Assembly (NCBI RefSeq): GCF_030269305.1
Contig: NZ_BSTC01000002.1
Span: 248,001-312,000, forward strand
DNA: 64,000 bases
Origin: Kineosporia sp. NBRC 101731
GTDB lineage: Bacteria; Actinomycetota; Actinomycetes; Actinomycetales; Kineosporiaceae
Direction of reading: 5' to 3'
The notes below the pieces were generated by a model. That model was given only the letters and a program-made list of their open reading frames with translations, did no database searches and was not told where the DNA came from. The translations under genes and the position numbers were made by a program. This document shows, piece after piece, positions 20,964-61,499 of this stretch (position 1 is the stretch's first letter; each line of letters opens with the position of its first letter).

Positions 20964-21974
20964 TCAGACCGGCCTGATGCCGGCGACCAGGTCCTGCCGG
21001 GCCCGGGCGATGCGTTCCTGGGTGATCTCCGGAGTGTCACCCACGACGGCCACATAGGCCCGCCGGGCCCGCACGTCATCGGCCGGAGCGATCCGGTCGC
21101 CGACCTGGTAGGGGAAACGGACTCCTCGTACCCACGGCGTCACCGCGATGTCCTCCATGCCGGTGTAGGTCTCCAGGAGCCCTTCCGGTAGGAGGAAGAA
21201 TCCGAGCTCCGCGTACCGGGAGGCGTCCGGGACCAGGGGGTGGCCGCCCTGAAGACCGCTGAAAACTGCCTCCTCCAGGTCGAATCCACAGGACCCCTCG
21301 ATGAGCAGGGGAATGCGGTCGACGCCCAGGTGAGGCCGGACCGACACGATCTGCGGCCCTTCGGGCAGCAGGACCACCTCGGTGACGGACGGGCCGGAAC
21401 GGTATCCGCTCGTCATCAGTTCGTCCGCGACCACCTCGCCGATGGTCTTCTGTTCGTGGTCGGTCAACGGAGCGGGCTGCAGGTAGCCGGTCAGACGGAA
21501 GTGCGGCGGGCCGGTGGTCCGGTGGGCCGTCATCCCCACGACGTGATGGGTCCCGTTCACGGTCACCGCCTGGACGCTCACCCGGGGGGCCTCCGGCGGC
21601 ACCCGGACCGTTCCCGACCGGGCCGCGAGGCGTTCGTAGACCTCCGGCGGGTTCGGGGACCGGCCCAGCCGCCAGGCCTCCTCGACCACCGGCCGGACGC
21701 TGCTGCCGTATCCGCAGTGCATCACCACGTCGATGCCCGCACGCTCCACGGTGGACACGATCACCTCGCGCAGGCCGGCCTCGTCGGTGAAGTCGGTGAG
21801 CAACAGCTCCTGTGAACAACTCTCGATCCGTGGGGCGAAGTCGGCCTCGAGCTGAGAAGGGTCCCACACCGACCAGATGCGGAACCCCATCTCGGCTCCC
21901 CTACGGACGAGTTGGTGACTCGGCATCACCAAAAGCACCCTGAGCTGCGAGACTCCTGGGAATTGTGCGTCCAT
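20964..21974 (-). CDS. Degenerate ATP-grasp ligase-like protein lacking the ATP-binding core
   Basis: About 336 residues. The N-terminal lobe (MPSHQLVRRGAEMGFRIWSVWD) and the C-terminal half (HHVVGMTAHRTTGPPHFRLTGY, then a degraded counterpart of the Glu-Asn segment in EGPQIVSVRPHLGVDRIP) resemble carboxylate-amine ligases of the L-amino-acid-ligase group. Between SPNPPEVYERLAARSG and the following strand, the stretch that normally holds the Lys-containing ATP-grasp core is absent. It probably cannot bind ATP normally and may be a partner subunit, a binding protein or a decaying gene. I used the ATG at 21974; a GTG at 22055 would lengthen it into the upstream gene. Last gene of the leftward run. 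Confidence 0.65.
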   Translation of the reverse strand: MDAQFPGVSQLRVLLVMPSHQLVRRGAEMGFRIWSVWDPSQLEADFAPRIESCSQELLLTDFTDEAGLREVIVSTVERAGIDVVMHCGYGSSVRPVVEEAWRLGRSPNPPEVYERLAARSGTVRVPPEAPRVSVQAVTVNGTHHVVGMTAHRTTGPPHFRLTGYLQPAPLTDHEQKTIGEVVADELMTSGYRSGPSVTEVVLLPEGPQIVSVRPHLGVDRIPLLIEGSCGFDLEEAVFSGLQGGHPLVPDASRYAELGFFLLPEGLLETYTGMEDIAVTPWVRGVRFPYQVGDRIAPADDVRARRAYVAVVGDTPEITQERIARARQDLVAGIRPV

Positions 21975-23079
21975 GCCCTCGACTATGGACCGCCCTCTTC
22001 CCACCTTGTTCCCCTTCGCTTCCCCTGCCGCCGTGGACGAGTACGGGTCGGTCACCGGGCCGTAACGAGTAGACCAGTTCCCCGGCCGTCGACGGATCTC
22101 CGGGCCAGAGCCGTAGTTCCCCCCGGTCGGGGCGCATCATCACGGCCGCGACCGTGCGTTCGCGCCGGATGTCACCGTTGTCCGCCACCAGCACCGGCGG
22201 TACCGACAGCAGCCGGTGGTGGCCGTCCGTGTCGTCCGGGTCCAGCACCAGTGCTGCCCGGACCGCCTCCAGACGCCGCCGGGACGAGTTCTTGGCGAAG
22301 ATGTTGATCTCGTCCCGCGCGAGGAGGTCCGGGTGCAGGAAGTGGTTCGTGTGGGCCAGCTCGTCGCCCTCGATCAGACGTCTCTGGGTGCCCAGGGCCT
22401 CGACGCACACCACCCGTTCCCGGCCGCAGACCATGAATGACCGGGAGCTGGCCAGCGGTAGCGCGGTGAGCATCGCCACCGCCTCGTCGACCGTGCCCGC
22501 GCTGTCCAGCACGTGCCGGATCGCCAGGTAGGGCGGCACGCCCGGGGTCCAGTCACCCCCGAGGACGAGGTTGATGCCGACGGCGATCCCGGCATCGTTC
22601 AGCCCGAGGTACCCCAGGAGCCCCGCGAAACTGAGGACGAGACTGCGCCGGCCTGGCCCGGAGACCGCCAGCAGGGCGATCTGGTCGTCGAGATTCCCGT
22701 TCAGGTCGACGGTCTGCGCCAGTACCGGCCGGTTCCGGACCGAGGCGTAGGTGCTGCAGTCGCCCGCCGTGACCCGGCTGTAGCCCAGGAGCTCGCGCCG
22801 CAGTTGCAGCAGCCAGGCCTCGTCCCGCTCGATCCCGGCGCCGACGGCCAGCCCGTCCACCTCGTCGGCGAGCCCGGGCAGCACGGCGGCCACGACCTCC
22901 CGGTGGGCGGCGATACCGGGCCGGAGCGAGTCCAGGTCCATCGGCCGGTCGCTGAGGTGGCCGAGACGGGCGAGCGAGTCGTCCAGGAAGCCCCGCAGCC
23001 GTCCGGCCAGCGCCCGGCCGTGGGTGACCCCACGGGACCGGGGCGAGCCGGACAGCTCCAGCAGCGGAACGCTGTTCAT
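21901..23079 (-). CDS. C45/acyl-CoA:6-APA acyltransferase-family N-terminal-nucleophile enzyme
   Basis: A 392-residue protein of the penicillin acyltransferase (AAT, peptidase C45) family. The nucleophile is Cys108 in AGDCSTYAS, at the expected self-cleavage site. Downstream, GLNDAGIAVGINLV and LAHTNHFL are family-typical. Such enzymes remove or exchange an acyl group on an amine. In this setting the most economical role is removing a temporary N-acyl group put on by the adjacent GNAT protein (inference). The start overlaps the GNAT stop (ATGA). The C-terminal ~40 residues look non-conserved and run into the next gene, so the functional end may be near the YSLRPGD segment. Confidence 0.8.
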   Translation of the reverse strand: MNSVPLLELSGSPRSRGVTHGRALAGRLRGFLDDSLARLGHLSDRPMDLDSLRPGIAAHREVVAAVLPGLADEVDGLAVGAGIERDEAWLLQLRRELLGYSRVTAGDCSTYASVRNRPVLAQTVDLNGNLDDQIALLAVSGPGRRSLVLSFAGLLGYLGLNDAGIAVGINLVLGGDWTPGVPPYLAIRHVLDSAGTVDEAVAMLTALPLASSRSFMVCGRERVVCVEALGTQRRLIEGDELAHTNHFLHPDLLARDEINIFAKNSSRRRLEAVRAALVLDPDDTDGHHRLLSVPPVLVADNGDIRRERTVAAVMMRPDRGELRLWPGDPSTAGELVYSLRPGDRPVLVHGGRGSEGEQGGKRAVHSRGHGRTIPRSLAAQGAFGDAESPTRP

Positions 23080-23693: not shown

Positions 23694-23699
23694 GGATCC

Positions 23700-23963
23700 T
23701 CACCCTTCCGGGACGGCGTGGGGGCGCAGCGCGTTCACGACGCCGTCGAGGGTGCGCATGCGGGCCAGATCGTCCTCGGTGAAGTTGTGGAGACCGACCG
23801 ACGCCGCCTTGCACAGGGAGGTCAGGAAGAGCACCTTGTTGAGCGACGAGACCCCGTAGACCTCGACGAGGTCCTCGCTCGGGTCGAGGGTCGCGGGGTC
23901 CGGGTGGTCACGCAGCACCTGGGAGAGCTTCACGCGGGCCAGGGTGTCGAGGTCAGTAGGCAC
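23700..23963 (-). CDS. Acyl/peptidyl carrier protein (for the adjacent ligase)
   Basis: An 87-residue carrier protein. The 4'-phosphopantetheine attachment serine is probably Ser40 in VYGVSSLNKV, at the usual position before helix 2; the common DSL is SSL. The gene overlaps the 3' end of the adenylating ligase by 11 bases, so the two are translationally coupled. The ligase most likely loads hydrazinoacetic acid, or a derivative, onto this protein. Confidence 0.85.
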   Translation of the reverse strand: MPTDLDTLARVKLSQVLRDHPDPATLDPSEDLVEVYGVSSLNKVLFLTSLCKAASVGLHNFTEDDLARMRTLDGVVNALRPHAVPEG

Positions 23964-25470
23964 GGATACCTGCTTTCGGGTCGTCGATACGGTTGCTGTA
24001 GCGGTGGGCGATGCGGTGGCGCACGGGCTTGAACTGTGATGTCAGGAGACCGTTCTCGACCGTGAACGGTTCGTCGGCGACGATCACCCGCACGATCCGC
24101 TCGTCCGGCTCGGACACGGCGTTGACGTCGGCCAGGGCCACGCTGACCGCGCCGGTGTCGACCGGGCCGGGAAGCGGGGAAACGACGGCGACCAGCCCGG
24201 CCGAGCTCGGGTGGTACAGGACGCAGTCGCTCACCGCACCGGTGTCCCGGAAGCGGGTCTCGACCGGCCGGACGATGATCTTCTTGCCGTTGCCGAGGAC
24301 CAGGACGTCGTCGGCGCGGCCGAGGATGTACAGGAACCCGTCGTCGTCGAGCCGGCCCAGATCGCCGGTGCGCACCAGACCTCCTGGCCCGAAGATGTTC
24401 TCGCTGCTACCGGGCGCCGCGAAGGTGTAGCGGGTGTTGACCGGGAAGTCGCTGCGCACGTGGACCACCCCGTCGTCATCGATGATGATCTCCTTGCCGG
24501 GCAGAGCCCGCCCCACACTCCCTTCACGCGTGGCGCCGGGATAGTTCTTCGTGACGATGCAGGTCTCGTTGAGTCCGTAGCCCTCGTAGATCTCCAGCCC
24601 GGCCCGGCCGTAGAAATCGAGCATGGCCCGGTCGGCCGGGGCCGAACCCGTCCACAGGTACCGGATCCGGTCGCCGAAGACCTCCGCGACGGCTTCGGCG
24701 GGTTCGGCGCCGTCGGCGACACTGTTCTCGATGTGCCGCCGGACCGCGTCGAAGAAGGCGGGCACCCCCATCACGACCGTGGGCCGCACGGTCGACATCA
24801 CCGCCAGCACCGACTGGTAGGTCGTGATCGTGAGGTCGTGCCCCCAGTACAGGGCCGAGTAGAGCCAATAGCGCTGCTGGAGGATCGAGAGCGGCAGAAA
24901 GGTGAGGATGTCGTCGCCCGGGCCGTGCCCGAAGAGCCCCTGGACGGCGTGCAGCGACGAGTCGATGCTGCCGGCGGTCGCTTCCAGTCCTTTGGGCACG
25001 CCGGTGGAACCGGACGTGAACTTCACCGTCGTGCAGTCTGTGGTCGCCCACTGCACCGGGTCGAGGTCCGCGGGCACCTCCCCCGCATGGTCGGCGACGA
25101 TCGAGATCGGTACCGCCTGCGGTGGGGCGTCGTCGGGCAGGGGAACGTCGGTGAACAGCAGGTCGAGGTCGTAACGCTCGACCAGATCGGCGTCCGGGGT
25201 GAACTTGCCCGGTTCGAAGCCGGCCGTCTGTGCCTTGATCATGAGAGCGGCGAGGTCGAGCAGCACCCATTCCATCCGGTTCGCCGACAGAATCCCGATG
25301 CGGCTGCCCGGGCCGGCGCCCCGGCGTCGCAGGGCACCGGCCACGGCCCGGGCCTGGTCGTAAAAATCGGCCGCCGACCATGATGTTCGATGACCGAGCC
25401 CGATGACCGTGATGCCCGCCCCGGGTGCCGGCCGGGTCGAGATGACGTGATTGATGACGGAGGTGTCCAC
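23953..25470 (-). CDS. AMP-dependent acyl/amino-acyl-ACP ligase
   Basis: A 505-residue ANL-superfamily enzyme. Motif A3 is FTSGSTGVPKG, A5 is GYGLNET, A7 is RTGDLG and A8 is ILGRADDVLVLGNGKK. The C-terminal Lys (QFKPVRHRI region) is plausible. It activates a carboxylic acid as acyl-AMP and, given its coupled carrier protein, transfers it to the phosphopantetheine thiol. By analogy with the triacsin acyl-ACP ligase that follows the hydrazine-forming genes, hydrazinoacetic acid is the predicted substrate (inference). The GTG at 25470 starts 5 bases after the upstream stop. Confidence 0.82.
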   Translation of the reverse strand: MDTSVINHVISTRPAPGAGITVIGLGHRTSWSAADFYDQARAVAGALRRRGAGPGSRIGILSANRMEWVLLDLAALMIKAQTAGFEPGKFTPDADLVERYDLDLLFTDVPLPDDAPPQAVPISIVADHAGEVPADLDPVQWATTDCTTVKFTSGSTGVPKGLEATAGSIDSSLHAVQGLFGHGPGDDILTFLPLSILQQRYWLYSALYWGHDLTITTYQSVLAVMSTVRPTVVMGVPAFFDAVRRHIENSVADGAEPAEAVAEVFGDRIRYLWTGSAPADRAMLDFYGRAGLEIYEGYGLNETCIVTKNYPGATREGSVGRALPGKEIIIDDDGVVHVRSDFPVNTRYTFAAPGSSENIFGPGGLVRTGDLGRLDDDGFLYILGRADDVLVLGNGKKIIVRPVETRFRDTGAVSDCVLYHPSSAGLVAVVSPLPGPVDTGAVSVALADVNAVSEPDERIVRVIVADEPFTVENGLLTSQFKPVRHRIAHRYSNRIDDPKAGIRAY

Positions 25471-25475
25471 GGCCG

Positions 25476-27470
25476 CTACCTGTCCCGGGCCGGTTCGCCG
25501 ACGCTGAAGAAGCGGGTTCCCGCCAGGGTGCAACGGTTTCCGGGGCCGACCAGACGCACCTCGTCGGGCCATTCGCTGACCGCCGGAAGCCCTAGGGAAG
25601 CAGCGAGTCTCGCCGAGAACCGGGGCATCATCGGGGCCGCCGCGGTGGCGAGCAACCGGGCTGCCGCCAGTTCGAGAGCGACCGCCGTGCGGGCCTCGGA
25701 ACTCCACCGGTCGATCCCGGCCAGGGCCGCCTGTCGGCGCGAGAAGGCCCGGACATCGGTGACGATGCCGTCCAGGACGGCCGCCGCGTCGCGCACCGAG
25801 AAGCCCCCGGGGTCGAGCGCCGCGGTGACCTCGTCGAGCCGCAACGACAGCCGGGCCAGGAACGCGGTGTGCTCCCCGGTCCAGGTGCCGGCGTCGGGAA
25901 CCACACCGCCGAAGTCCCGGTCGATGCGCTCGCCCAGCCCGCCGAGCCAGTCCTCCCACTGACCGACGAGGGTCTGCGAGCAGGCCCGGTCGAACTCGGC
26001 GCGACGGAAGTCGGTGCGCTCACCCTCGGGGCGAGTGCGGCAGAGGTAGTAGCGGACGGCGTCGACGGACTCCGGGGTGAGGATGTCCTTGCCCCAGATC
26101 GCATGCCGTCGGCTGGTCGAGAACTTCTGCCCTTCGAGCAGATAGAACTCGTTGACGTGGTAATCGATGTCGGGGTCCCACCCGGGGAAGGCCAGCCGGT
26201 AGAGAACGGGGTAGAGGATCGAGTGGTAGAAGCTGTTGTCGTAACCGAAGAAGTGCACGATCTTCCAGTCCGCCGACGGCGTCTCCCGTGACCAGCTCTC
26301 CCCCCGGCCGGCGCCGAGACGTTCGATGCCGTGCAGGAACCCGTAGCTCATCTCCGGCCAGACCCAGATCGCCTGACCCTCCAGGTCGTCCTGCGCCGGT
26401 GGCACGCCCCAGCCGGACGGGTGCGAGACCGGCAGGTCGAGCCGCCCGCGGGCGAAGACCCGCTGGGCCAGCTCGCGCAGACGGGCCGGCACCCGGCCGC
26501 GCCGATGATGATCGGCCACCACGTCGGCGAATTCGTGCAACGGCAGCGTGTAGCGCTCGACCTCGGTCTGCTTCGGGGCCGAGGGGCTCAGCCGGGAGAC
26601 CGGGGCGGCGAGGTCCGCCACCAGGTTGGGCTCACCGCACTCCTCGCAGATGTTGCCGCCCGTGCTCCCGGAGCAGCCGGGACAGGTCCCCCCGACATTG
26701 ACCTCGTAGAGATACTCGCCGGTCTCGGCGTCCTGGAGGGCAGGCGTGGTCATCGGGCGGACGTGGCCCGACTCCACCAGGCGGGTGAAGAAGCGCTGGA
26801 GGCCCTCGGGGTAGCCCTCGTTCACGCTGGTGGCGTAGAACTCGTCGACCTCGATGTCCATCGCCTTCAGCGTCGCGGCGATCTCGGCCGAGTAATGGGC
26901 GGCCACCTCGGCGGGAGTGGTGTTCTCGCGTTCCGCAACGGCGCCGACATAGCTCTGGAAATCGTCACTGCCCGTCAGGTGCCAGGCCTGGTTGCCCTGC
27001 AGTCGCTGGTGCCGGACGTAGACGTCCGCCCCCAGGTAGGGACCGGAGAGATGACCGAGGTGCAGGTCGCCATTGGGGGTGGGAGGGGTGGAGAAGACGA
27101 ACTGCGGACGCCCGGTGCGCCCGGTGCTGTTGCCCGACCGGGCCTGGTCCTGCGCCCGGGCCGGGTCGCGCCAGTACTGGGTGAAGAAGATCAGGTCGGT
27201 CCCGCCGTTGTTGCTGATGGTGTGCGACTCGAACGGCTCGAACAGGACCACGGTGCCCGGCCGGACTTCTCGGGTGCGCCCGTCGACGGTCAGATCGCCG
27301 GTGCCGGAGACGATCACGAAGAACTCGGTCTCGTCGTGCTGATGGCTCTGCGAGGCCGCGCCCGGGACCACCCGGCCCCAGCCGGCGCCGAAACCGAGCC
27401 CCTCGACCGAGGACATGTCGATGTCGAACGCTTCCGACAGCTCGGATTCGCTGTACTGGTTGAGGATCAT
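25476..27470 (-). CDS. Cupin-methionyl-tRNA-synthetase-like fusion (hydrazine synthetase)
   Basis: A 664-residue fusion. An N-terminal cupin (residues 25-98) carries metal ligands H43, H45 and E49 (SHQHDETEF) and H83. The rest is a class I MetRS-like module: HLGH (137-140) replaces HIGH, KFSTSR (449-454) replaces KMSKS, and Cys263, Cys266, Cys275 and Cys278 form a zinc knuckle. The fusion is diagnostic for enzymes such as Spb40 (s56-p1) and its triacsin counterpart, which use ATP to activate one amino acid and join it to N6-hydroxylysine, creating an N-N bond with glycine. The two neighbouring genes supply and process that substrate. AGAGG precedes the ATG by 5 bases, and the start overlaps the oxidase stop (ATGA). 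A housekeeping MetRS is ruled out by the cupin and context. Confidence 0.93.
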   Translation of the reverse strand: MILNQYSESELSEAFDIDMSSVEGLGFGAGWGRVVPGAASQSHQHDETEFFVIVSGTGDLTVDGRTREVRPGTVVLFEPFESHTISNNGGTDLIFFTQYWRDPARAQDQARSGNSTGRTGRPQFVFSTPPTPNGDLHLGHLSGPYLGADVYVRHQRLQGNQAWHLTGSDDFQSYVGAVAERENTTPAEVAAHYSAEIAATLKAMDIEVDEFYATSVNEGYPEGLQRFFTRLVESGHVRPMTTPALQDAETGEYLYEVNVGGTCPGCSGSTGGNICEECGEPNLVADLAAPVSRLSPSAPKQTEVERYTLPLHEFADVVADHHRRGRVPARLRELAQRVFARGRLDLPVSHPSGWGVPPAQDDLEGQAIWVWPEMSYGFLHGIERLGAGRGESWSRETPSADWKIVHFFGYDNSFYHSILYPVLYRLAFPGWDPDIDYHVNEFYLLEGQKFSTSRRHAIWGKDILTPESVDAVRYYLCRTRPEGERTDFRRAEFDRACSQTLVGQWEDWLGGLGERIDRDFGGVVPDAGTWTGEHTAFLARLSLRLDEVTAALDPGGFSVRDAAAVLDGIVTDVRAFSRRQAALAGIDRWSSEARTAVALELAAARLLATAAAPMMPRFSARLAASLGLPAVSEWPDEVRLVGPGNRCTLAGTRFFSVGEPARDR

Positions 27471-28549
27471 GCCAACCTCTGTGGTTGCTGGTAGGAGTTC
27501 CGGTGCGGGACAAGGTGCGGGGCGAGATCCAGCGCGGCGACGGTCTCGACCGCGATGGCGGGGGCCAGGCGGTACCCGGAGCCGTTGGCCGCCCCGGCGA
27601 AGACGAGGCCCGGTCGCAGTTGCGCGACGACGGGTTCGCGGTTCGGGCTGTAGGCGTCGCAGAACACCCGGCCGGAGTCGCACCGCGCCACCAGGCCGGG
27701 AGCGAACCGGGCCAGGGCGGCCCGGGCGTCGTCGAGGTCGAAGCTCTCCAGGCCGCGTCCGACGTCGTCGGGATCGACGTCCCAGCGATCGCTCGTGTAG
27801 CTGAACAGGAAGTGGTTGCGTTCCAGGAGCGGCAGGAGGAAGGCGTCGTGGTCGTGGAAGATCGTGAGCGGGTCGTCCGGTGACGGGAGAAGGGCGAGAT
27901 GGGCCGCGACCACCCTCTTCACGCGCAGTTCCAGCGGTGCGAGCAGGTCGGCCCAGGCCGGGTGCGCGATCCACGGGCCCGGAGCCAGCACGACCTGCCG
28001 GGCGAGCACCTGCCTCCCATGGCCGAGGGTGAGCCGGATCCGGCCGTCCGGGCCGTCGCAGATCTCCCCGACCTCCGCCCCCTCGAGCACCGTCACCCGA
28101 TCACGCAGACCTGCCAGTAGCCGGTTGGCGACCCCCTGGACATCGGCGTAGTGGCAGCCCTCCACCTTCCAGGCCCGGGCCGCGACCCCGGGGCCCCCGT
28201 CACGGGCGGCCCCGGACCAGGCGATCTCGTCACCGAGCCGGACGTAGGTGGTCGACACGGCGCCGGCGTCACCACCGGTGACGACCGTCGCGTCCACCTG
28301 CCGGATCGGCAGGTCGAGTTCGGCGGCCAGACGCTCCCAGACCCCCTGGGAGTACTCGGCCATCGACCGGACCCGCTCGGTCGCACCTCGCGGGAAGTGC
28401 ACGCCCGCCGATCGGCTGGAGGCTCCCTGACCGATCAGGCCCTGTTCCAGAACAACCACCGTGGTGCCGGGAGATGCCGCCACCACCTCGTGGGCGATGA
28501 GCGCACCGATGACCCCGCCACCCACGATCGCGACGTCTACAGCGTCCAC
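27467..28549 (-). CDS. FAD-dependent amine/amino-acid oxidase (DAO family, hydrazinoacetate-releasing)
   Basis: A 360-residue flavoprotein of the D-amino-acid/glycine oxidase fold. The FAD-binding Rossmann motif is VAIVGGGVIGALIAHE at the N-terminus, and the C-terminal FAD contact is FAGAANGSGYRLAPAI. In the s56-p1 pathway the equivalent enzyme oxidises the N6-(carboxymethylamino)lysine hydrazine, releasing hydrazinoacetic acid and 2-aminoadipate semialdehyde. The gene sits exactly between the lysine hydroxylase (13-bp overlap) and the cupin-MetRS gene (4-bp overlap), which strongly supports that role. Confidence 0.88.
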   Translation of the reverse strand: MDAVDVAIVGGGVIGALIAHEVVAASPGTTVVVLEQGLIGQGASSRSAGVHFPRGATERVRSMAEYSQGVWERLAAELDLPIRQVDATVVTGGDAGAVSTTYVRLGDEIAWSGAARDGGPGVAARAWKVEGCHYADVQGVANRLLAGLRDRVTVLEGAEVGEICDGPDGRIRLTLGHGRQVLARQVVLAPGPWIAHPAWADLLAPLELRVKRVVAAHLALLPSPDDPLTIFHDHDAFLLPLLERNHFLFSYTSDRWDVDPDDVGRGLESFDLDDARAALARFAPGLVARCDSGRVFCDAYSPNREPVVAQLRPGLVFAGAANGSGYRLAPAIAVETVAALDLAPHLVPHRNSYQQPQRLA

Positions 28550-29877: not shown

Positions 29878-29922
29878 GTCAGGTCCTTCCTATGGATGGG
29901 TGTAACCGGGATCAGCGATGGT

Positions 29923-31074: not shown

Positions 31075-31179
31075 CGTGATCCTCACTCGAAAGATCGACC
31101 CAGGATCTGACATGGGTCGTCCGTGTGGCTCAGAGCCCGACGCGCACCGCCGGGCCCCGGGCCCACGAGATCGTCCAGG

Positions 31180-32022: not shown

Positions 32023-32280
32023 CTAATTATGCTGTACTGCAGAACGATTCGCATCAATCAGTTCAGCGACCTCCACCAGACGATGACCGCCCACCAGAGC
32101 GCCCATCTCGATCCGGACCGACGTCTCCCGCAGGATGCGGAACTGCAGCGCGACCGCCTGCAGCGAGCCGAGGCCGAGCTCGGTCAGTGTGCGCCGATCG
32201 ATCTCCTCGGACTCCGGCACCTGCAGGGTCTCCCGGACCAGGGTCCGCAGCCACGGCAGGGTTTCACTGGTGCTCAGCAT
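32023..32280 (-). CDS. Acyl carrier protein (second ACP, with KAS III-like partner)
   Basis: An 85-residue carrier protein with attachment Ser39 in LGLGSLQAV. AAGGAGG lies 7 bases before the ATG at 32280, a near-ideal ribosome-binding site. It is immediately downstream of a ketoacyl-synthase-III-like gene and probably carries that enzyme's donor or acceptor. It differs clearly in sequence from the ACP at 23700. Confidence 0.88.
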   Translation of the reverse strand: MLSTSETLPWLRTLVRETLQVPESEEIDRRTLTELGLGSLQAVALQFRILRETSVRIEMGALVGGHRLVEVAELIDANRSAVQHN

Positions 32281-32293
32281 GGTGTTGCCTCCT

Positions 32294-34946: not shown

Positions 34947-34983
34947 AGTCTTCTCCTCGGGTTGATGTGGACATCGTGGATGA

Positions 34984-36286: not shown

Positions 36287-36379
36287 GGCTCCTAGTCTCG
36301 GAACTCCCGGCGTAGAGCCGGAGGCGCGAATTCTCTCCTCATTCCGAAGCGGTATCAAACCGGCATTTCGCCGTGGCGA

Positions 36380-44993: not shown

Positions 44994-45115
44994 GTCCTGG
45001 TCGGAGGCTTTCCCCCGAAGAGGGATCCGGCCGGTGTCCAGAGGGGAACGCGCCGGGAAGGCTGATCGGAAGTATCAGCGGTGTCGAAGAAGACTCCTCC
45101 GGAAAAAGGAACATC

Positions 45116-45271: not shown

Positions 45272-45340
45272 TCCAGGCACGTCGCCCGCCGGTCCGGAAC
45301 GCGTCCTTGCTGAGAGACGCCGCAATTCGAGGGGAACAGC

Positions 45341-46054: not shown

Positions 46055-46097
46055 CCTCGCCTCCGCGCCCTCCGTGCGGTTCCCCGTAGGACGAGGA

Positions 46098-46130
46098 GGC
46101 GGCCGGTACGGGAACACCGTTCCGGCCGCC
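46098..46130. terminator. Hairpin between convergent regulator and dehydrogenase genes
   Basis: GGCGGCCGG (46098-46106) pairs with CCGGCCGCC (46122-46130), with an inner GGAAC/GTTCC stem. It separates the rightward regulatory run from the leftward NRPS run. Confidence 0.8.
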
Positions 46131-46145
46131 GCCGACGAACCGTCC

Positions 46146-48363: not shown

Positions 48364-48373
48364 CTGCGTCTCC

Positions 48374-53556: not shown

Positions 53557-54431
53557 CGGTGTACCCGTTCCAGTAGGTGGTCGACAATGGCGTCCGCGAC
53601 GTCGACCCGGTCGCCGTGCGCGGACTGGAATCCGCTGAACTCGACCCGGTGGTTGACCTCCAGCACCAGTAACCGGCCCTCGCGGTCCTCGACCAGGTCG
53701 ACCCCGGCGATGTCGGCGCCGACCGCGGCGGCGGCGTCGAGAGCCAGCCGCGCGATGTCCGCGGTGACCTCGCACGCCTGGGTCTGGCCACCGAGAGCCA
53801 CGTTGGTACGCAACGACTCTCCGGTCCGGTAGACGGCACCGAGCACCCGGCCACCGACCACGATCACCCGGATGTCCCGGTCGGGTTTGTCGATCAGTTC
53901 CTGTACGTAACCCAGGTGCGACTGCGGACCGGTCAGTGCCGCCGCGTATTCCAGCACCGCCTCGGCGGTGGCGCGGTCGGGCAGCGGGACGATCAGACGG
54001 CCCCACGAACCGACCAGCGGTTTGATCAGCGCCGGGTACTTGATGTCGTCCAGGGCGTCCAGCGTGGCCTCGGGGGTCAGGCCGAGCGCGGTCCGCGGCA
54101 TCGGCACTCCCGCCGCCTGCAGGCTGACGGTGGAGCGCCACTTGTCGCCGCACACCTCGATGGCGGCGGCGCTGTTGACCACCTCGGCACCGGCCGCCGC
54201 GAGACAGTGGGCCGCGTACGCCGCCCGGACCTGACTGATCTCGCGGTTCAGCACCAGGCGCCACGGCAGATCGCGTCGCCCGGCCACAAAGGACTGCCGG
54301 CGTGTGTCGACGTGCTCGTAGGGGACGCCGCGCCGTTCGAACGCGCCGAACAATCGCTTCTCGTCCGCACCGACCCTACTGGCGAGCACCGCTATCGTGC
54401 GCTCGCCCAGGTGCTCCGGTGTCGCTGACAC
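53553..54431 (-). CDS. lysX: LysX-like AmCP-glutamate ligase (ATP-grasp, RimK family)
   Basis: A 292-residue ATP-grasp ligase. ATP-binding Lys is in YPALIKPLVGSWGRL, a specificity segment in YVQELIDKPDRDIRVIVVGG, and the C-terminal metal and substrate motif VNHRVEFSGFQ is typical of LysX. It joins the alpha-amine of glutamate (or a related amino acid) to the C-terminal Glu of LysW. GGAGG lies just before the GTG at 54431. The gene is about 14 kb from lysW, on the other side of the regulatory genes, yet it heads the operon containing the release peptidase and NRPS. Confidence 0.9.
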   Translation of the reverse strand: MSATPEHLGERTIAVLASRVGADEKRLFGAFERRGVPYEHVDTRRQSFVAGRRDLPWRLVLNREISQVRAAYAAHCLAAAGAEVVNSAAAIEVCGDKWRSTVSLQAAGVPMPRTALGLTPEATLDALDDIKYPALIKPLVGSWGRLIVPLPDRATAEAVLEYAAALTGPQSHLGYVQELIDKPDRDIRVIVVGGRVLGAVYRTGESLRTNVALGGQTQACEVTADIARLALDAAAAVGADIAGVDLVEDREGRLLVLEVNHRVEFSGFQSAHGDRVDVADAIVDHLLERVHR

Positions 54432-55391: not shown

Positions 55392-55485
55392 CGCCGTCCC
55401 GGATCCCCGATGCCGCCACCGGATGTTCTTTCCGGCGATCGAGGTTCGGCCACATCCATAACCGTTCAGTGAGGTGGATCATTCG

Positions 55486-56076
55486 ATGGACATAGCGATG
55501 TCCTCAGCCAGATCAGGCCTGTGCGACCCGGTCGACATCTCCGGCCATCGCAACAACACGGCCGTCTCCACGGCCACCGGGACCGGGGCCGGAGAGTTCA
55601 ACGTATGGGGAAATTCTTTTGCCGCCGAATATTTGCCGTCCGGACCGGAACGGGTTCAGGTCGACGGCATTCCCTTCGACTTCCCGCGGGTCGGTGACGG
55701 TCCCGACAACATCCGCTGCTCCGGGCAGGCCATCCGCGTCCCGGAAGGTCGCTACGACTGGATCCACGTCCTGGCCGCCTCCGAACGACGCAGTGAGGAG
55801 ACCGTCGACCTGCGCTTCGCCGACGGCTCGGTCGACGCCGAACCGCTGCGGGTCTCCGACTTCTGGTCCGCACCGGCCTGGTTCGGTGAGATCAAGGCGT
55901 TCGAGAGCCTCGTCATGCACTACCCGCACCACGTGCAGCGCGGTGTCCCGGCGGTGATGTGGGCCCAGCGGGTGCCGGTCACCCGGCGGGCCGCGCTGAC
56001 CAGCATCCTGCTGCCCCGCAACGTCGCCGTGCACATCTTCGCGGTCACCCTCCAACGGACGGAGAAACTGAGATGA
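55486..56076 (+). CDS. Beta-rich protein, candidate small subunit of aziridine synthase (AziU2/Vzb10-11 type)
   Basis: A 196-residue protein with many predicted beta strands and a galactose-binding-like pattern (GDGPDNIRCSGQAIRVPEGRYDW is split here between two strands). Tryptophan-rich segments lie near VSDFWSAPAWFGEIKAF, and the C-terminal strands include ILLPRNVAVHIFAV. I recognise no catalytic motif. It is 94 bp after the sulfotransferase and overlaps the next gene by four bases, which suggests a two-subunit enzyme. I placed the start at the ATG at 55486, which has GAGGTGG 8 bases upstream. The aziridine-synthase role is inferred from gene order only. Confidence 0.5.
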   Translation: MDIAMSSARSGLCDPVDISGHRNNTAVSTATGTGAGEFNVWGNSFAAEYLPSGPERVQVDGIPFDFPRVGDGPDNIRCSGQAIRVPEGRYDWIHVLAASERRSEETVDLRFADGSVDAEPLRVSDFWSAPAWFGEIKAFESLVMHYPHHVQRGVPAVMWAQRVPVTRRAALTSILLPRNVAVHIFAVTLQRTEKLR

Positions 56077-57125
56077 CGGTCGAGGCGACGACCCGGACGT
56101 CCATGGTCACCGGCGCGGAACCACAGTGGTGGTACCGCGATCTCGTCAGCTGCCTACAGTCCACGTTCGGCTCGGTCCTGGCCCGGGCGGGGGCCGACCC
56201 CCTGACCGTGCTCGGCTCGGGCTGGCGTTTCCTGCACCGGCCGGGCGACGTACGGTCCGAGGAGTTCTACTACCCGTGCCCCACCGATGCCTCGCGCGAA
56301 CCCGACCTCGGCGCCGCTCTGGCTCCGCACCACGAACTTCACGCCCGATGGTGGCAACCCGCCGACGAGAACGACACCTGGCGGGAGGTACGCGATTCCC
56401 TGAACGACGACCGGCTGGTGATCGCGGCCGTGGACAACTACCACCTGCCCTTCCGGCCCGCCTACGGCGACGTGCACGCCGCCCACCTGGTCGTCATCTA
56501 CGGACTGGACGAGACCCGTGGGCTGGTGCACGTCTGTGACGCGATGCCCCCCGCGTTCCGCGGCACTGTCCCGATCGAGGCATTCCTGCGCAGCTGGGGC
56601 TCCGCGAATCCGAGCGACGTCCAGGACGCCTTCTTCAGCGACTCCCAGATCGGGCGGCGCTGTCTCGACGTCCGTCTCGACGCGGAACCCGCACCGCTGA
56701 CGCCCGAACTGCTCGGCGGCTTCATGCGCATCGACGTCGAGCACTTCACCACGGCCGGACCCGGCCGGACCGGGCTGACCGGCTACGACCGGTTCGCCGC
56801 GGAACTGCTCGACCGCTGCCGGGCCGGGGACGCCGGCGCCCTGCGCGAGCTCTACCCGTTCGGCTGGGCCATGCAGGCGCAGGCATCACTCCACGGTGAA
56901 CTGGTCCGGCGCTGCGGTCATGAGTGGGACGACCCGGCCCTCGCCGGGGCGGGCCGCGCGGTGGAGACCGTCGCCCACGCCTGGACCGGACTGCGGTTCA
57001 CCGGCGCCCACGGGCTCGCCGATCCCCGGGCGGTCTCGTCGGACATCGCACATCACCTCACGGTGCTGCGCTCGGCGTACGCGCGCGCGGTCGACGCCGT
57101 GGGCGCCTGCGCGGCGCGACTTTGA
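56073..57125 (+). CDS. BtrH-like papain-fold protein, candidate large subunit of aziridine synthase (AziU3 type)
   Basis: A 350-residue protein. The N-terminal part resembles the BtrH-type papain-like fold: Cys27 ([10 protein letters not shown]), His135/His138 ([14 protein letters not shown]) and Asp156 (VCDAMPP), although whether these act as a triad is unknown. The C-terminal 120 residues look helical. It is coupled (ATGA) to the beta-rich protein before it and lies between a sulfotransferase and the DADH-forming genes, which is where a sulfate-eliminating aziridine synthase would be expected. An acyltransferase or peptidase-like role is the main alternative. Confidence 0.5.
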
Positions 57126-57168
57126 CCGCGAGCGGACCGATCAGCGTGGACCAGCGGAGGAGAGAGCC

Positions 57169-58464
57169 ATGAGCAAGCTGGCAGTGTTCGGCGGTACGGC
57201 CGCCGTGCCGAAGCACCGTCGCCGGGTCGAGTGGCCCCTGGTGGAGGACGACGACCGCAAGGCCGTCCTCGGCGCGCTCGACGGTGCGCGGCTGGTGTCT
57301 GACACCGACGGGGTGAACCCGGTGTCGGACCTGGAGGAGAGCTGGGCCCGTCAGTTCGGGTTCGAGCACTGCGTCGCGGTGTCCAACGGCACCGCGGCCC
57401 TGGCCCTGGCCCTGGCCGCGCTCGGTATCGGCCCCGGTGACGAGGTGATCGTGCCCGCACTCACCTTCATCGCCACCGGGCTCGCCCCGTTGCACCAGAT
57501 GGCGGTTCCGGTGTTCGCCGACGTCGATCCGGTCACCTTCACCATCGACCCGGACGACATCGAACGCCGGATCACGCCCCGGACCAGGGCGATCATCCCC
57601 GTGCACCTGCACGGAGCCCCCGCCGACATGGACCGGATCAACGAGATCGCGACCCGGCACGGCCTCGCGGTGGTGGAGGACGCCGCCCAGGCCCCCGGCG
57701 CGACGCACCGCGGGCGCCCCGTCGGCGGGATCGGCGATCTGGGCACGTTCAGTCTCCAGGTCAGCAAGAACATCCCGACCTGTGGTGAGGGCGGGCTGGT
57801 GGTGACCCGCAGCGCCGAACTGGCCGAGGCGGTGCGCAAGGGACGGCAGTTCGGCGAGGTCATCGAGAGCGGACGCGAACGCGACTACATCTCCTACAAC
57901 CTGGGCTGGAACTACAAGATGAACGCGCTGCAGGCCGCGTTCACCCAGTCCCAGCTGACCCGGTTCGAGGGGTACGAGCGGGCCCGGCAGCAGAACATCG
58001 GCGGTTTCCTCGCCCGGCTCTCGCGACTGCCGGGGATTCAGGTGCCGACCGCATTGCCGGACACCACCCATGCCTGGCACATTCTGCGCTTCCGGTTCGA
58101 TCCGGCCGCGTTCGGCCTGGACGGCACGCGACCGCAGGCACTGCGCTCGGCCCTGCGACGGCTGCTGCGTGCCGAGGGCGTGCCGATGTCGCAGTACCAG
58201 CTCATGCCGCTACCCGACCAGAAGGTGTTCGTCGAACGTCTCGGTTTCGGCTCGGGCTATCCCTGGTCGGTCACCGGAGCGACGGGAACAATTGCGGGAG
58301 AGGGGTATCCGGTGACCCGCGCGGTGATCGCCGACTCCCTGACCATTCAGAAGCGGCACCTGCACCCGGGGTCGGGAGACCTGCTCGGACTCTACGCGGA
58401 CGCCTTCGAGAAGGTGTGGGAGAACCGCGACGCGGTGGCCACACTCGCGGGTGCGGCGTCATGA
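57169..58464 (+). CDS. DegT/DnrJ/EryC1-family PLP aminotransferase
   Basis: A 431-residue fold-type I aminotransferase. The PLP-binding lysine is Lys200 in [14 protein letters not shown], with [13 protein letters not shown] near residue 71 and [11 protein letters not shown] near residue 168. In the AmCP pathway it would aminate the C6 ketone made by the transketolase, giving a 2,6-diamino-5,7-dihydroxyheptanoyl group on LysW. Sugar aminotransferases are the usual members of this family, but no sugar-nucleotide genes are present. GGAGG precedes the ATG at 57169, and the stop overlaps the transketolase start. Confidence 0.88.
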
Positions 58465-59303
58465 CGATCATCCAGTCCCCGGAGACCTCGACCCTGTACT
58501 CGGTGGCCGCGCGCATCCGCTCGCACGTCGTCGACATGTGCGCGGGACCGGAGGGCGGCCATCTCGGGGGCGCCTTCTCCAGTGCCGATGTGCTTGCCGC
58601 CCTGTACTTCTCGGTGATGAACGTCGATCCGCAACGACCGGACGACCCGGATCGCGACCGGTTCCTGCTCAGCAAGGGCCATGCTGCGATCGGTCTCTAC
58701 GCGACGCTCGCCGAGCGGGGGTTCATCCCGGTCGAGGAGCTCGCCGGGTACGGCCGGCCGGGCAGCCGGCTGATGGGTCATCCCGTGCGGGCGGTGCCGG
58801 GGGTGGAGCTGCCGACCGGCTCGCTCGGGCACGGGCTGGCTCTGGCCTGCGGCTTCGCTCTGGCCGCGCGATACGCCGGCCGCCGCTCGCGCAGTTTCGT
58901 CCTGCTCGGTGACGGCGAACTCCAGGAGGGCTCGGTCTGGGAGGCCGCGATCGTGGCGGCGGCCCAGCGTCTGGACCGGCTGGTGGCTGTGGTGGACCGC
59001 AACGGCCTGCAGTTGACCGGCTCCACCGAAGGTATTGCCCCGATGGAGCCGCTGGCCGAGCGCTGGCGCAGTTTCGGCTGGTCGGTGCGCGACGTCGACG
59101 GACACGACCCGGTCGAGCTGGCCGAGCATCTGGACGAGGCGCCGTGGGAACCGGGCCGCCCGAGCGTGCTGATCGCGCGCACGGTCAAGGGCCAGGGCCT
59201 GCCGTTCCTGGCCGGCCACAGCAGCAGCCACTACGTGACGCTGTCGGCGCGCCATCACGCCCGGGCGATCCGTGCACTGCGGGCCGGGGAGGTGGACGGA
59301 TGA
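58461..59303 (+). CDS. Transketolase, N-terminal (ThDP-binding) subunit
   Basis: A 280-residue half-transketolase. The thiamine-diphosphate motif runs from [10 protein letters not shown] to [10 protein letters not shown], and catalytic histidines lie in [12 protein letters not shown] and MGHPV. It pairs with the next gene to form a two-gene enzyme. In the DADH route such a pair transfers a two-carbon ketol unit to the aldehyde of [LysW]-glutamate semialdehyde. The start overlaps the aminotransferase stop by four bases (ATGA). A primary pentose-phosphate enzyme would normally be a single longer chain. Confidence 0.9.
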
Positions 59304-60235
59304 GCACAGCGAGCCGGGAGGCGTACCGGGACACGTTGTTCACGCTGCTGGAGCAGCACCCCGAGCTGATCTGCCTGGACACGGACACCGGGTTGTTCCG
59401 GGCCGAGCACGCCGCGGCGGCCGGTGAGCAGTACCTGAACCTCGGCATCGCCGAGCACACCCTGATGGGCGTGGGCGCCGGGATGGCTGCGAGCGGGCGG
59501 GTCCCGTTCGTCAACACGATGGCTACCTTCGCGGTGTCCCGGGCCCTCGAAGCCATCAAGATCGATATCGCGTACAACCAGCTACCGGTGCGCATCATGG
59601 CCACCCACGGTGGTCTGTCGGCCGGGCACCTCGGCCCGACCCATCAGGCCCTGGAGGATCTCGCCCTGATGCGGATCCTGCCGGGCATGACCGTGGTGGT
59701 GCCGGCCGATGCCGCCGCCACCGAGGAGTTCGTCCGGCAGAGCATGGATGTGGCCGGCCCGATGTACATCCGGCTGGACCGCAAACCGACACCGCTCCTG
59801 CCGCCCGCACCGCCCCCGGTCATCGGCCGGGCGCAGACCCTGCGCGAGGGCGACGACGTGGTTCTCGTGTGCTGCGGGCCGTACCCGGTTCTCGCCTGTC
59901 TCGAAGCGGCCGATCTCCTGGCCGGGCAGGGCATCGGGGCCAGGGTGCTGAACATGCACACCCTGCGGCCGTTCGACGCGGCCACGCTGGTGGCCGCGGC
60001 GCGACCGGCGCGACTCGTCGTCACGGTGGAAGAGCATTGGCGCAGCGGAGGTCTCGGCGGCGCGGTGACCGAGGTACTGGCGGAGTCGGTGCCCCGGAAG
60101 GTGCTGCGGCTGGGCCTGCCGGACCAGTTCGTCGACGTCGTCGGCGACCAGAGACATCTGGTCTCCCACTACGGCCTGACCGCGGAACGCGTCGTCAGCA
60201 AGGTCCGGTCCGCCCTCGATGCTGCCCACTGCTGA
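59300..60235 (+). CDS. Transketolase, C-terminal (Pyr and regulatory) subunit
   Basis: A 311-residue partner of the preceding gene. The pyrimidine-binding domain contains the catalytic Glu in LNLGIAEHTLMGVGAGMA, and SAGHLGPTHQALEDLALMR is typical of the C-terminal transketolase half. The C-terminal domain (LRPFDAATLVAAARPARLVVTVEEH) is complete. The start overlaps the N-subunit stop by four bases. Together they supply carbons 6 and 7 of the predicted DADH unit. Confidence 0.9.
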   Translation: MSTASREAYRDTLFTLLEQHPELICLDTDTGLFRAEHAAAAGEQYLNLGIAEHTLMGVGAGMAASGRVPFVNTMATFAVSRALEAIKIDIAYNQLPVRIMATHGGLSAGHLGPTHQALEDLALMRILPGMTVVVPADAAATEEFVRQSMDVAGPMYIRLDRKPTPLLPPAPPPVIGRAQTLREGDDVVLVCCGPYPVLACLEAADLLAGQGIGARVLNMHTLRPFDAATLVAAARPARLVVTVEEHWRSGGLGGAVTEVLAESVPRKVLRLGLPDQFVDVVGDQRHLVSHYGLTAERVVSKVRSALDAAHC

Positions 60236-60248
60236 AGGAGAGTCCCCG

Positions 60249-61499
60249 ATGTCCCGGTCCGAACTGGCCCCCTCGTCACATGTCATCGTGATCAATCGCT
60301 GGCGGGAGCACTACGCGGAATATGCCGCCCATATCGACCACCACCGGCATCGCGTGACCTACGTGAGTACCGAGGTGGGTCTGGCCTCGGTGCCGGACAC
60401 CGCGACCGAGGTCGTCGTGGTGACGGCTACCGACGATCTGGCCGAGGTCACCGCGGCCGTCGACGACCTGGTCGGCCGGCACGGACGCCCCGACGGGATC
60501 GTCGCTCTCAAGGAGGACGATCTCCTGATCGGCGCCGCACTGCGGGAGCGGTGGAGCGTGCCCGGCCCGTCGGCCGGCCAGTTGCTGCCGTTCCGCGACA
60601 AACTGGTGATGGCGTCCCTCATCGCCGAGGCGGGCGTACCCGCACCGGCATTCGCAGCGGCCCCGGACGCCGCGCGGGTGACGGCCTTCGCGCAGCTCCA
60701 CGGCTGGCCGGTGATCGTCAAACCGACGACGGCCAGTTCCAGCCTGGGTGTGGTGCGGGTCGAAACCCCGCAGGACGCGGCCGGCCTGGACCTCGACGAC
60801 GGTCCGCACATCGTGCAGACCTTCGATCCGCGCCCGATCCATCACGTGGACGGTTCCTTCGACGGGGAGAAGGTCTGTGTCGTCCGGACGTCCCGTTATC
60901 TCACCAGTTGCCTGGACTTCCGTGACGGAAAGGTTCTGAGCACGGTCGAGGAAGACGACCCGGTACTCCAGCAGTTCGTGGCCGACTTCGCCGACCGGGC
61001 CCTGCGCGCGCTCACGGACCGGCCCACCGTGTTCCATCTGGAACTGTTCGTCGACCGGACGACCGGTGAGTGCAGCTTCCTGGAGGTCGGGGCACGCGTC
61101 GGAGGTGGAGAGACGTCGTTGCTGTGGCGCGAGGTGCACGGGACGGACCTGATGGAGATCGCTGTCCGCTATCAGCTCGCACTGCCGTCACCGTTGATCT
61201 CCGCGCCGGCCACTCGTGAGGTCGCGGGCTATCTCCTGGCGCCGGCCCCGCAGAACAGGCCGTGCCGGATCACCACCGTCACATCGATGCTCGGGCAGTC
61301 GCCCGGCCCCTACGCGGAGTCGATCCCGGAGGCCGGCGACGTGCTGTCCGACGCCGACTCCTACTACGAGCACGTGGGTGGGAGATTCCGCTTCCGGGGT
61401 GTTTCCACGGCCGCGGTGGAGGAGGCCATCCGGCGGACCGCAGCCACGTTCCGGGTGGAGGGGGAGGCGCTGGAACAGCGTGTCTCCCAGTTCGCCTGA
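60249..61499 (+). CDS. ATP-grasp carboxylate-amine ligase
   Basis: A 416-residue ATP-grasp enzyme. ATP-binding Lys is in WPVIVKPTTASSSLGVVRVE and the metal-binding Glu in FLEVGARVGGGETSLL, close to L-amino-acid ligase. AAGGAGA lies just before the ATG at 60249. It is the last gene of the sulfotransferase-aminotransferase-transketolase run. It could couple the DADH-type amino acid to a second acid, for example the hydrazinoacetate-derived unit (inference). Differs strongly from the ligases at 36380 and 39995. Confidence 0.88.
   Translation: MSRSELAPSSHVIVINRWREHYAEYAAHIDHHRHRVTYVSTEVGLASVPDTATEVVVVTATDDLAEVTAAVDDLVGRHGRPDGIVALKEDDLLIGAALRERWSVPGPSAGQLLPFRDKLVMASLIAEAGVPAPAFAAAPDAARVTAFAQLHGWPVIVKPTTASSSLGVVRVETPQDAAGLDLDDGPHIVQTFDPRPIHHVDGSFDGEKVCVVRTSRYLTSCLDFRDGKVLSTVEEDDPVLQQFVADFADRALRALTDRPTVFHLELFVDRTTGECSFLEVGARVGGGETSLLWREVHGTDLMEIAVRYQLALPSPLISAPATREVAGYLLAPAPQNRPCRITTVTSMLGQSPGPYAESIPEAGDVLSDADSYYEHVGGRFRFRGVSTAAVEEAIRRTAATFRVEGEALEQRVSQFA

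What the first reader, a model, noticed from the sequence alone, without database searches (positions are those of the whole stretch)
20964..61499. One cluster appears to join hydrazinoacetate (N-N bond) machinery with amino-group-carrier, sulfotransferase and candidate aziridine-forming machinery
The sequence directly shows a cupin-MetRS fusion with a lysine N-hydroxylase and FAD oxidase (the hydrazine set), a LysW with LysX, LysZ, LysY and LysK homologues, a split transketolase and DegT aminotransferase (the DADH set), plus a sulfotransferase and two unusual proteins. Each module is known separately or in part (s56-p1, triacsin, vazabitide, azinomycin). The combination with KAS III, two ACPs, a 2OG dioxygenase, an abnormal NRPS and four ATP-grasp-type proteins suggests a product with both a hydrazine/hydrazone and a DADH-derived, perhaps aziridine, unit. 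I cannot exclude that it makes s56-p1 or a close relative.
Basis: partly seen in the sequence, partly recalled or inferred. Interest (0 to 1): 0.95.

Follow-up and report, generated by a model that had tools for sequence, protein, structure and literature searches.

The report
s56-p1-type hydrazone plus aziridine gene cluster
This stretch of an actinobacterial genome holds a gene set that appears to build one small molecule from a nitrogen-nitrogen unit and a strained aziridine-type amino acid, closely matching clusters in Streptomyces that resemble the pathway of the known compound s56-p1; it looks like a new host and a sub-variant rather than a new kind of system.

Summary
Window 20964-61499 carries 35 cluster genes. 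One block is a full hydrazonoacetyl-carrier cassette. The other is an amino-group-carrier/DADH set with a LysW ending in EDWGE. The "two unusual proteins" match solved AziU2 and AziU3, the aziridine-forming pair. The two acyl-CoA-dehydrogenase-like genes beside the NRPS match both chains of PDB 8hk0, which I take, by inference, to be the reported azabicyclohexane oxidase. The combination is not unprecedented: s56-p1 is published as derived from hydrazinoacetate and DADH. Four Streptomyces contigs carry 32, 33, 33 and 31 of the 35 genes; the last contig ends inside the cluster. In two more genomes the two halves lie on separate contigs. None of 12 other genomes searched from the host's family has the AziU2 gene. 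The window and Streptomyces sp. CBMA156 share a 2OG dioxygenase and an extra ATP-grasp protein not seen in the clusters of the other relatives, and lack five genes that three others share. Verdict: new member of a known kind.

The parts
20964..21974 (-). LAL_C2 protein, possibly degenerate ATP-grasp; cluster edge
   Evidence: PF18603 E 5e-12, ATP-grasp_4 only E 0.25; 63-66% in four relatives
21901..23079 (-). C45 peptidase (AzsT/DobA role: removes succinyl)
   Evidence: PF03417; NF040521 above cut-off; role from PMC13061610
23076..23693 (-). GNAT, hydrazinoacetate succinyltransferase (AzsS/DobB/Tri31 role)
   Evidence: PF13302
23700..23963 (-). ACP1, carrier of the hydrazonoacetyl group (AzsQ/DobQ/Tri30 role)
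   Evidence: no Pfam hit; GVSSLNKV motif; 74-81% in six relatives
23953..25470 (-). AMP-dependent ligase loading succinyl-hydrazinoacetate on ACP1 (start chosen by homology)
   Evidence: PF00501; start
25476..27470 (-). Cupin-MetRS hydrazine synthetase (Spb40/Tri28 role), no C-terminal carrier domain found
   Evidence: PF07883, PF09334, PF19303; 73-82% in six relatives
27467..28549 (-). FAD oxidase releasing hydrazinoacetate (Spb39 role)
   Evidence: PF01266
28537..29877 (-). L-lysine N6-hydroxylase (Spb38 role)
   Evidence: PF13434 E 3e-95
29923..31113 (-). Acyl-CoA-dehydrogenase-type oxidase making the hydrazone (AzsF/Tri22/DobM role)
   Evidence: PF00441, PF02770
31180..31860 (-). 2OG-Fe dioxygenase, subtype-specific
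   Evidence: PF10014; 66% in CBMA156 in the same place; other matches in the six genomes 35-36% and outside the cluster
32023..32313 (-). ACP2, proposed acceptor carrier
   Evidence: PF00550; its homologue is fused to KAS III in WAC 01529
32294..33217 (-). KAS III-like acyltransferase (AzsD/Tri13 role)
   Evidence: PF08545/PF08541; GHCFAADP where FabH has Asn (recalled), 5 of 5
33214..34176 (-). alpha/beta hydrolase
   Evidence: PF07859
34173..34946 (-). short-chain dehydrogenase
   Evidence: PF13561; start
35042..36358 (-). MFS exporter
   Evidence: PF07690
36380..37651 (-). ATP-grasp amide ligase resembling DdaF (dapdiamide A synthase)
   Evidence: PF13535; DdaF model 226 bits, below its 840-bit cut-off; NF005543 above cut-off, no function named
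37654..38505 (-). LysZ-type [LysW]-aminoacyl kinase
   Evidence: NF010659 above cut-off
38528..39553 (-). LysY-type semialdehyde dehydrogenase
   Evidence: PF01118, PF22698
39594..39773 (-). LysW amino-group carrier protein ending EEDWGE
   Evidence: PF21344 E 4e-12
39995..41206 (+). ATP-grasp ligase
   Evidence: PF13535
41203..41781 (+). DUF1062 protein
   Evidence: PF06353; 43-45% in four relatives
41937..44993 (+). AfsR/SARP-type regulator
   Evidence: PF03704, PF00931
45341..46054 (+). LuxR-type response regulator
   Evidence: PF00072, PF00196
46146..47216 (-). Oxidase partner subunit
   Evidence: 8hk0_C E 1.5e-118
47218..48363 (-). Oxidase subunit
   Evidence: 8hk0_A E 6e-192 over the full length
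48374..52435 (-). NRPS C*-A-PCP-TE with a degenerate condensation domain
   Evidence: Pfam; motif comparison
52432..53556 (-). M20 / LysK-type hydrolase releasing product from LysW
   Evidence: PF01546; start
53553..54431 (-). LysX-type ligase
   Evidence: PF08443, PF22626
54657..55391 (+). Sulfotransferase
   Evidence: PF19798 E 4e-16
55474..56076 (+). AziU2 homologue (aziridine formation)
   Evidence: 7wuw_A E 4e-51, 8gs1_A
56073..57125 (+). AziU3 homologue (BtrH_N)
   Evidence: 7wuw_C E 1e-67
57169..58464 (+). DegT aminotransferase
   Evidence: PF01041; start
58461..59303 (+). Transketolase, N-terminal part
   Evidence: PF00456; start
59300..60235 (+). Transketolase, C-terminal part
   Evidence: PF02779, PF02780; start
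60249..61499 (+). ATP-grasp-like protein, subtype-specific in the cluster; cluster edge
   Evidence: weak ATP-grasp hits; 70% in CBMA156 in place

Best explanation
This is an s56-p1-type biosynthetic cluster in an unnamed actinobacterium whose family is not that of the Streptomyces relatives as far as the searches show. Inferred path: (1) lysine is N-hydroxylated, joined to glycine by the cupin-MetRS enzyme, and cleaved by the FAD oxidase to hydrazinoacetate. (2) This is succinylated, loaded on ACP1, oxidised and desuccinylated to hydrazonoacetyl-ACP1, then moved by the KAS III to ACP2. (3) LysW carries glutamate, which LysZ, LysY, transketolase and DegT turn into DADH; LysK-type hydrolysis frees it. 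(4) The sulfotransferase sulfates DADH, and AziU2/AziU3 displace the sulfate to give the aziridine. (5) The amino acid is held on the NRPS carrier, and the two-subunit oxidase closes the 1-azabicyclo[3.1.0]hexane ring, probably by alpha,beta-desaturation and aza-Michael addition (my proposal). The thioesterase releases it. (6) ATP-grasp ligases and ACP2 join the parts into a dipeptide-like hydrazone; in this subtype a 2OG dioxygenase adds a hydroxyl. Shown here: gene identities and relationships. Inferred from named homologues: all reactions. Unresolved: which enzyme moves the hydrazonoacetyl group onto an amine, and the final structure.
For: All six Pfam families that PMC13061610 used to define hydrazone-forming clusters are adjacent here. 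The lysine N-hydroxylase, FAD oxidase and fusion lie next to each other in the Spb38-39-40 order. AziU2 and AziU3 homologues sit beside a sulfotransferase; the oxidase pair matches both chains of 8hk0. LysW, LysX, LysY, LysZ and LysK types are present. 32, 33 and 33 of 35 genes recur in Streptomyces sp. WAC 01529, TBY4 and S. bambusae, and 31 of 35 on the truncated CBMA156 contig. KAS III is fused to the ACP2 homologue in WAC 01529 and its residues fit an acyltransferase. All six relatives carry CysC-, CysD- and CysN-type genes on the fetched stretches, side by side, which would supply PAPS for sulfation. s56-p1 is reported as a hydrazone dipeptide from hydrazinoacetate and DADH (PMC10445470, PMC11705231, PMC9303977; passages). 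Azinomycin DADH is reported to be sulfated and then closed to an aziridine (PMC9570651 passage).
Against: The s56-p1 cluster sequence (BGC0001764) was not available, so identity to the spb genes was not measured. The window has genes (2OG, ATP-grasp 3) not seen in the clusters of five of the six relatives, and lacks five genes that three of them share, so the product may differ. The three PAPS-supply genes present in all six relatives have no match anywhere in the 64-kb window. I saw only the title of the oxidase-heterotetramer paper; the link of 8hk0 to it is inference. ACP1 has no Pfam hit. No expression or metabolite data.
Confidence: 0.8

Rival explanations
1. The cluster makes s56-p1 itself, with no chemical novelty.
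For: Same building-block logic and Spb38-39-40 gene order. The published formula C16H26N6O9S (PMC13266690 table) can be written exactly as hydrazonoacetic acid + glycine + a dihydroxylated azabicyclic amino acid + N-acetylcysteine - 2 H2O, which would use the 2OG enzyme and a thiol-opened aziridine.
Against: The formula fits at least one quite different exact composition too (two DADH + hydrazonoacetic acid + sulfate), and 16 building-block sets fit its C, N and S with changes in H and O, so it proves nothing. At least two cluster subtypes exist and it is unknown which one is spb.
Confidence: 0.35
2. Two neighbouring, independent clusters (a hydrazone one and an azabicycle one) lie side by side.
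For: The azabicycle module occurs without the hydrazone block: 14 of the 21 loci with AziU2 at 71% or more lie in genomes without a cupin match at E <= 1e-10.
Against: The modules are interleaved (LysW, LysY, LysZ lie between the hydrazone genes and the NRPS), in a different order in relatives, yet stay on one contig in four genomes; published s56-p1 uses both.
Confidence: 0.07
3. The product carries a diazo group, like azaserine or 4-diazo-3-oxobutanoate.
For: The hydrazonoacetyl cassette is shared with azs and dob.
Against: No ferritin-like diiron (Dob3), haem-oxygenase-like (AzsE) or P450 (AzsG) family appeared in the Pfam scans of the cluster genes. PMC13061610 set s56-p1-related clusters apart from its diazo candidates. 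The 2OG enzyme's sequence matches in the PDB include an amino-acid hydroxylase.
Confidence: 0.05

Closest known systems
s56-p1 cluster (spb, BGC0001764, Streptomyces sp. SoC090715LN-17)
   Same: Lysine N-hydroxylase, FAD oxidase and cupin-MetRS in the same order; AmCP/DADH route; hydrazone dipeptide logic
   Different: Not compared by sequence; host genome is in another family than Streptomyces as far as seen; presence of 2OG and ATP-grasp 3 in spb unknown
Clusters of Streptomyces sp. WAC 01529, TBY4 and S. bambusae T110
   Same: 32, 33 and 33 of 35 genes
   Different: No 2OG or ATP-grasp 3 in the cluster; they share a desaturase, a Cys/Met-type PLP enzyme, a C26 peptidase, an alpha/beta hydrolase, an aminotransferase and a 452-aa protein without Pfam hit, plus CysC/D/N-type genes, none with a match in the window
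Cluster of Streptomyces sp. CBMA156 (41-kb contig)
   Same: 31 of 35 genes including 2OG (66%) and ATP-grasp 3 (70%) in place
   Different: Contig ends inside the cluster; carries CysC/D/N-type genes
Azinomycin and ficellomycin azabicycle pathways
   Same: AziU2, AziU3 by sequence; transketolase and aminotransferase to DADH and sulfation in azinomycin (PMC9570651 passage); oxidase heterotetramer with an NRPS (title only)
   Different: No hydrazinoacetate cassette there (recalled); gene clusters not compared here
Azaserine (azs) and triacsin (tri) clusters
   Same: Hydrazonoacetyl-ACP cassette and KAS III transferase (PMC10445470)
   Different: azs has a carrier domain on the cupin-MetRS protein and a Cy-type NRPS; tri has a second N-N enzyme and a PKS; no such families in the scans here

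Membership tests
s56-p1-type cluster | Lysine N-hydroxylase, FAD oxidase, cupin-MetRS adjacent in the Spb38-39-40 order | tested here: met
   28537-29877, 27467-28549, 25476-27470, all (-)
s56-p1-type cluster | AmCP (LysW) and DADH gene set in the same cluster | tested here: met
s56-p1-type cluster | Sequence identity to the spb genes | not testable with these tools
   BGC0001764 is not among the collections offered, as far as I could see
s56-p1-type cluster | Product is s56-p1 or a hydrazone dipeptide | not testable with these tools
   needs metabolite data
Hydrazonoacetyl-ACP cassette (azs/tri/dob) | PF02770, PF13434, PF01266, PF00501, PF13302, PF03417 together (criterion in PMC13061610) | tested here: met
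   criterion read
Azabicyclo[3.1.0]hexane module | AziU2 and AziU3 homologues with a sulfotransferase | tested here: met
Azabicyclo[3.1.0]hexane module | Two-subunit oxidase beside an NRPS | tested here: met
   that 8hk0 is the published oxidase is inferred
Azabicyclo[3.1.0]hexane module | PAPS-supply genes in the cluster (seen in all six relatives here; not known to be defining) | tested here: not met
   no CysC, CysD or CysN match in the 64-kb window; the rest of the genome was not searched for them
Azaserine cluster | Carrier domain at the end of the cupin-MetRS protein; a diazo-forming redox candidate (AzsE, AzsG types) | tested here: not met
   no PP-binding match in 25476-27974; no such redox families
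Triacsin cluster | Tri17/CreM-type second N-N enzyme and PKS | tested here: not met
   Pfam level only: no PKS ketosynthase other than KAS III, and the only AMP-binding proteins scanned are the ACP1 ligase and the NRPS; Tri17 itself was not searched for by sequence

The most novel reading that the evidence does not exclude
The window and CBMA156 clusters make a distinct, undescribed dual-warhead compound: a hydrazonoacetyl dipeptide whose azabicyclic aziridine is still intact and hydroxylated by the 2OG enzyme, and sulfur-containing s56-p1 is a thiol-trapped product of such an aziridine.
Probability: 0.2. Interest if true: 0.7.

Novelty: new member of a known kind. Interest (0 to 1): 0.45.

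Why it matters
It ties two unusual chemistries (N-N bond formation on a tRNA-synthetase-like enzyme, and sulfate-displacement aziridine formation followed by oxidase/NRPS ring closure) into one gene set, seen together on one contig in five genomes here, the host included. If the aziridine survives in the product, s56-p1-type compounds would be expected to alkylate DNA or thiols. The subtypes, with a natural KAS III-ACP2 fusion in one relative, offer a direct test of how the hydrazonoacetyl unit is handed on.

Tried and rejected
Considered and set aside: diazo product (no Dob3-, AzsE- or AzsG-type family); azaserine or triacsin identity (membership rows); two unrelated adjacent clusters (gene interleaving and co-occurrence). 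The A-domain residues read by eye along recalled GrsA positions (D V F D F G G V T) match no code that I recall; no substrate is claimed. The Spb numbers (Spb9 as a thioesterase homologue in PMC10445470, Spb38-40) were tried by eye against the gene orders here and gave no decision on which subtype spb is. The formula arithmetic is non-unique: two hand-written compositions are exact, and a search with fixed building blocks gave 16 sets that fit C, N and S with changes in H and O. Hits of the sulfotransferase to antibody chains (best E 0.022) are read as chance; no solved sulfotransferase appeared among the 60 rows shown. No PDB chain matched the lysine N-hydroxylase at E <= 1e-60, and the fusion matched MetRS structures only, no solved hydrazine synthetase by name. 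The ORF 44978-46201(-) opposite the response regulator gives tblastn matches but has no Pfam hit and is read as an antisense artefact; it was dropped from the 35-gene count, as was a 37%/81-aa match of ATP-grasp 3 in TBY4. A structure prediction of 20964-21974 was not obtained.


Full report
What is there. The window is G000:C2:248001-312000 of an unnamed 8.26-Mb actinobacterial genome. Of 10 flanking genes put into the comparison (eight upstream from 12305, and SmpB and an M23 peptidase downstream), none matched in the ten groups of related loci, while both edge genes did. The gene set was checked with Pfam and NCBIfam.

Hydrazone block, 21901-31113. It holds the C45 peptidase, GNAT, ACP1, AMP ligase, cupin-MetRS, FAD oxidase, lysine N-hydroxylase and an acyl-CoA-dehydrogenase-type oxidase. 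PMC13061610 (passages) defined hydrazone-forming clusters by PF02770, PF13434, PF01266, PF00501, PF13302 and PF03417; all six are here. ACP1 itself has no Pfam hit. The reactions are taken from that paper and from PMC10445470 (abstract, sections 6 and 10, and passages): succinylation of hydrazinoacetate, loading on a carrier, oxidation and desuccinylation, then transfer between carriers by a KAS III (AzsD, Tri13). Here a KAS III and a second ACP lie next to the block. In Streptomyces sp. WAC 01529 the two are one ORF, and the position of the FabH Asn (recalled) reads His in 5 of 5 sequences, which fits an acyltransferase better than a condensing enzyme.

DADH and azabicycle block. LysW (39594-39773) ends in EEDWGE and hits the LysW model. 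LysZ passes its curated cut-off. LysX, LysY, an M20/LysK-type hydrolase, DegT and a split transketolase are present. The sulfotransferase (54657) is followed by an AziU2 homologue and an AziU3 homologue. AziU3/U2 is described as functionally an aziridine synthase with a sulfate-displacement pathway (PMC12559475 passage), and 7WUX holds O7-sulfo-DADH (PMC11168924 passage); the sulfation and closure of azinomycin DADH are summarised in PMC9570651 (passage). The two acyl-CoA-dehydrogenase-like genes beside the NRPS match the two chains of PDB 8hk0 (E 1.5e-118 and 6e-192). I take 8hk0 to be the oxidase heterotetramer of Cheng et al. 2023, of which I saw only the title in a reference list; this link is inference. 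The NRPS condensation domain has lost the catalytic His motif (recalled) in 5 of 5 homologues, so it probably serves as a loading and ring-closing platform rather than as a peptide-bond maker.

Relatives. One scan of named genomes with the AziU2 homologue gave 42 loci. Their genomes were searched for the cupin part of the fusion: 40 genomes were searched (41 of the 42 loci; L040 was not held; two loci share a genome), and 12 had a match at E <= 1e-10. Six of these are at 72-81% identity. In four (WAC 01529, TBY4, S. bambusae, CBMA156) the cupin and AziU2 genes are on one contig, judged by equal contig lengths; in two (S. alkaliphilus, S. spiramenti) they are on different contigs. The other six matches are at 30-62%. 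Of the 35 cluster genes, 32, 33 and 33 are found in WAC 01529, TBY4 and S. bambusae. CBMA156 has 30 in the 40,000 of 41,145 contig bases searched and 31 with locus L050 added (ACAD2 as an 88-aa piece at the contig end). The antisense ORF at 44978 and one 81-aa match in TBY4 were dropped before counting. Of the 21 loci with AziU2 at 71% or more, all 21 carry the sulfotransferase, AziU3, DegT and both transketolase parts. Fifteen of them are not among the six genomes above; 14 of those had no cupin match and one (S. niger) had a 62% match on another contig. So the azabicycle module is the commoner part in this sample and the hydrazone block the addition.

Subtypes. The 2OG dioxygenase is in place only in the window and CBMA156 (66%); of the other five genomes, three have only 35-36% homologues away from the cluster and two have none at E <= 1e-5. 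ATP-grasp 3 is in place only in CBMA156 (70%); the other five have weaker homologues, the best 47-48% and on other contigs. WAC 01529, TBY4 and S. bambusae share a desaturase, a Cys/Met-type PLP enzyme, a C26 peptidase, an alpha/beta hydrolase and an aminotransferase (typed in WAC 01529; 81-92% between WAC 01529 and the other two) and a 452-aa protein without Pfam hit (70-88%). TBY4 and S. bambusae also have a glutamine-synthetase-like gene. None of these seven has a match in the window or CBMA156, nor in the held stretches of S. alkaliphilus and S. spiramenti, which are incomplete and also lack the 2OG gene; so there may be a third, plainer subtype. All six relatives have CysC-, CysD- and CysN-type genes side by side (typed for single examples; matches), as expected if PAPS is needed. 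None of the three has a match in the 64-kb window, so the host would have to supply PAPS from elsewhere; that was not searched.

Host. The AziU2 gene is in 1 of 13 genomes of the family, the host's own, and in 1 of 6 of the genus. The host's SmpB is 96% identical to one congener, 76-78% to two other family members and at most 74% to the genomes behind named loci that were tested (20 genomes searched, host included). The cupin part at E <= 1e-20 was found in 7 of 394 genomes drawn from the class, the host included; the best of the other six is 63%. Together with the close Streptomyces relatives this suggests horizontal transfer (inference; no tree was made).

Known or new. s56-p1 is described as a dipeptide with a hydrazone unit (PMC10445470), made through hydrazinoacetate (PMC11705231, PMC7347517 passages) and the DADH route (PMC9303977 passage). 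The joining of the two chemistries is therefore published. PMC13061610 counted 2 s56-p1-related clusters among 129. In my literature searches (listings, with passages from the papers named) I did not see a statement that s56-p1-type clusters encode AziU2/AziU3 and the 8hk0-like pair, but I did not see the primary s56-p1 papers, which may say so.

Noticed in passing
20964-21974 (-): An L-amino-acid-ligase-like protein with a good LAL_C2 domain but only a weak partial ATP-grasp match, with homologues in four relatives; possibly a non-catalytic ATP-grasp.
   Followed up: partly
L066:2375-3589 (-): In Streptomyces sp. WAC 01529 the KAS III and the second ACP are fused in one ORF.
   Followed up: partly
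G018, G025, G014, G034, G038, G049: Cupin and AziU2 homologues occur in these genomes but were not shown on one contig or close together; whether they form split or separate clusters is open.
   Followed up: no
41203-41781 (+): A DUF1062 protein of unknown role recurs at 43-45% in four of the relatives.
   Followed up: no
L070:2700-17557 (+): The TBY4 cluster region holds additional NRPS-like genes (34-37% to the window NRPS) between the SDR and the C45 peptidase.
   Followed up: no
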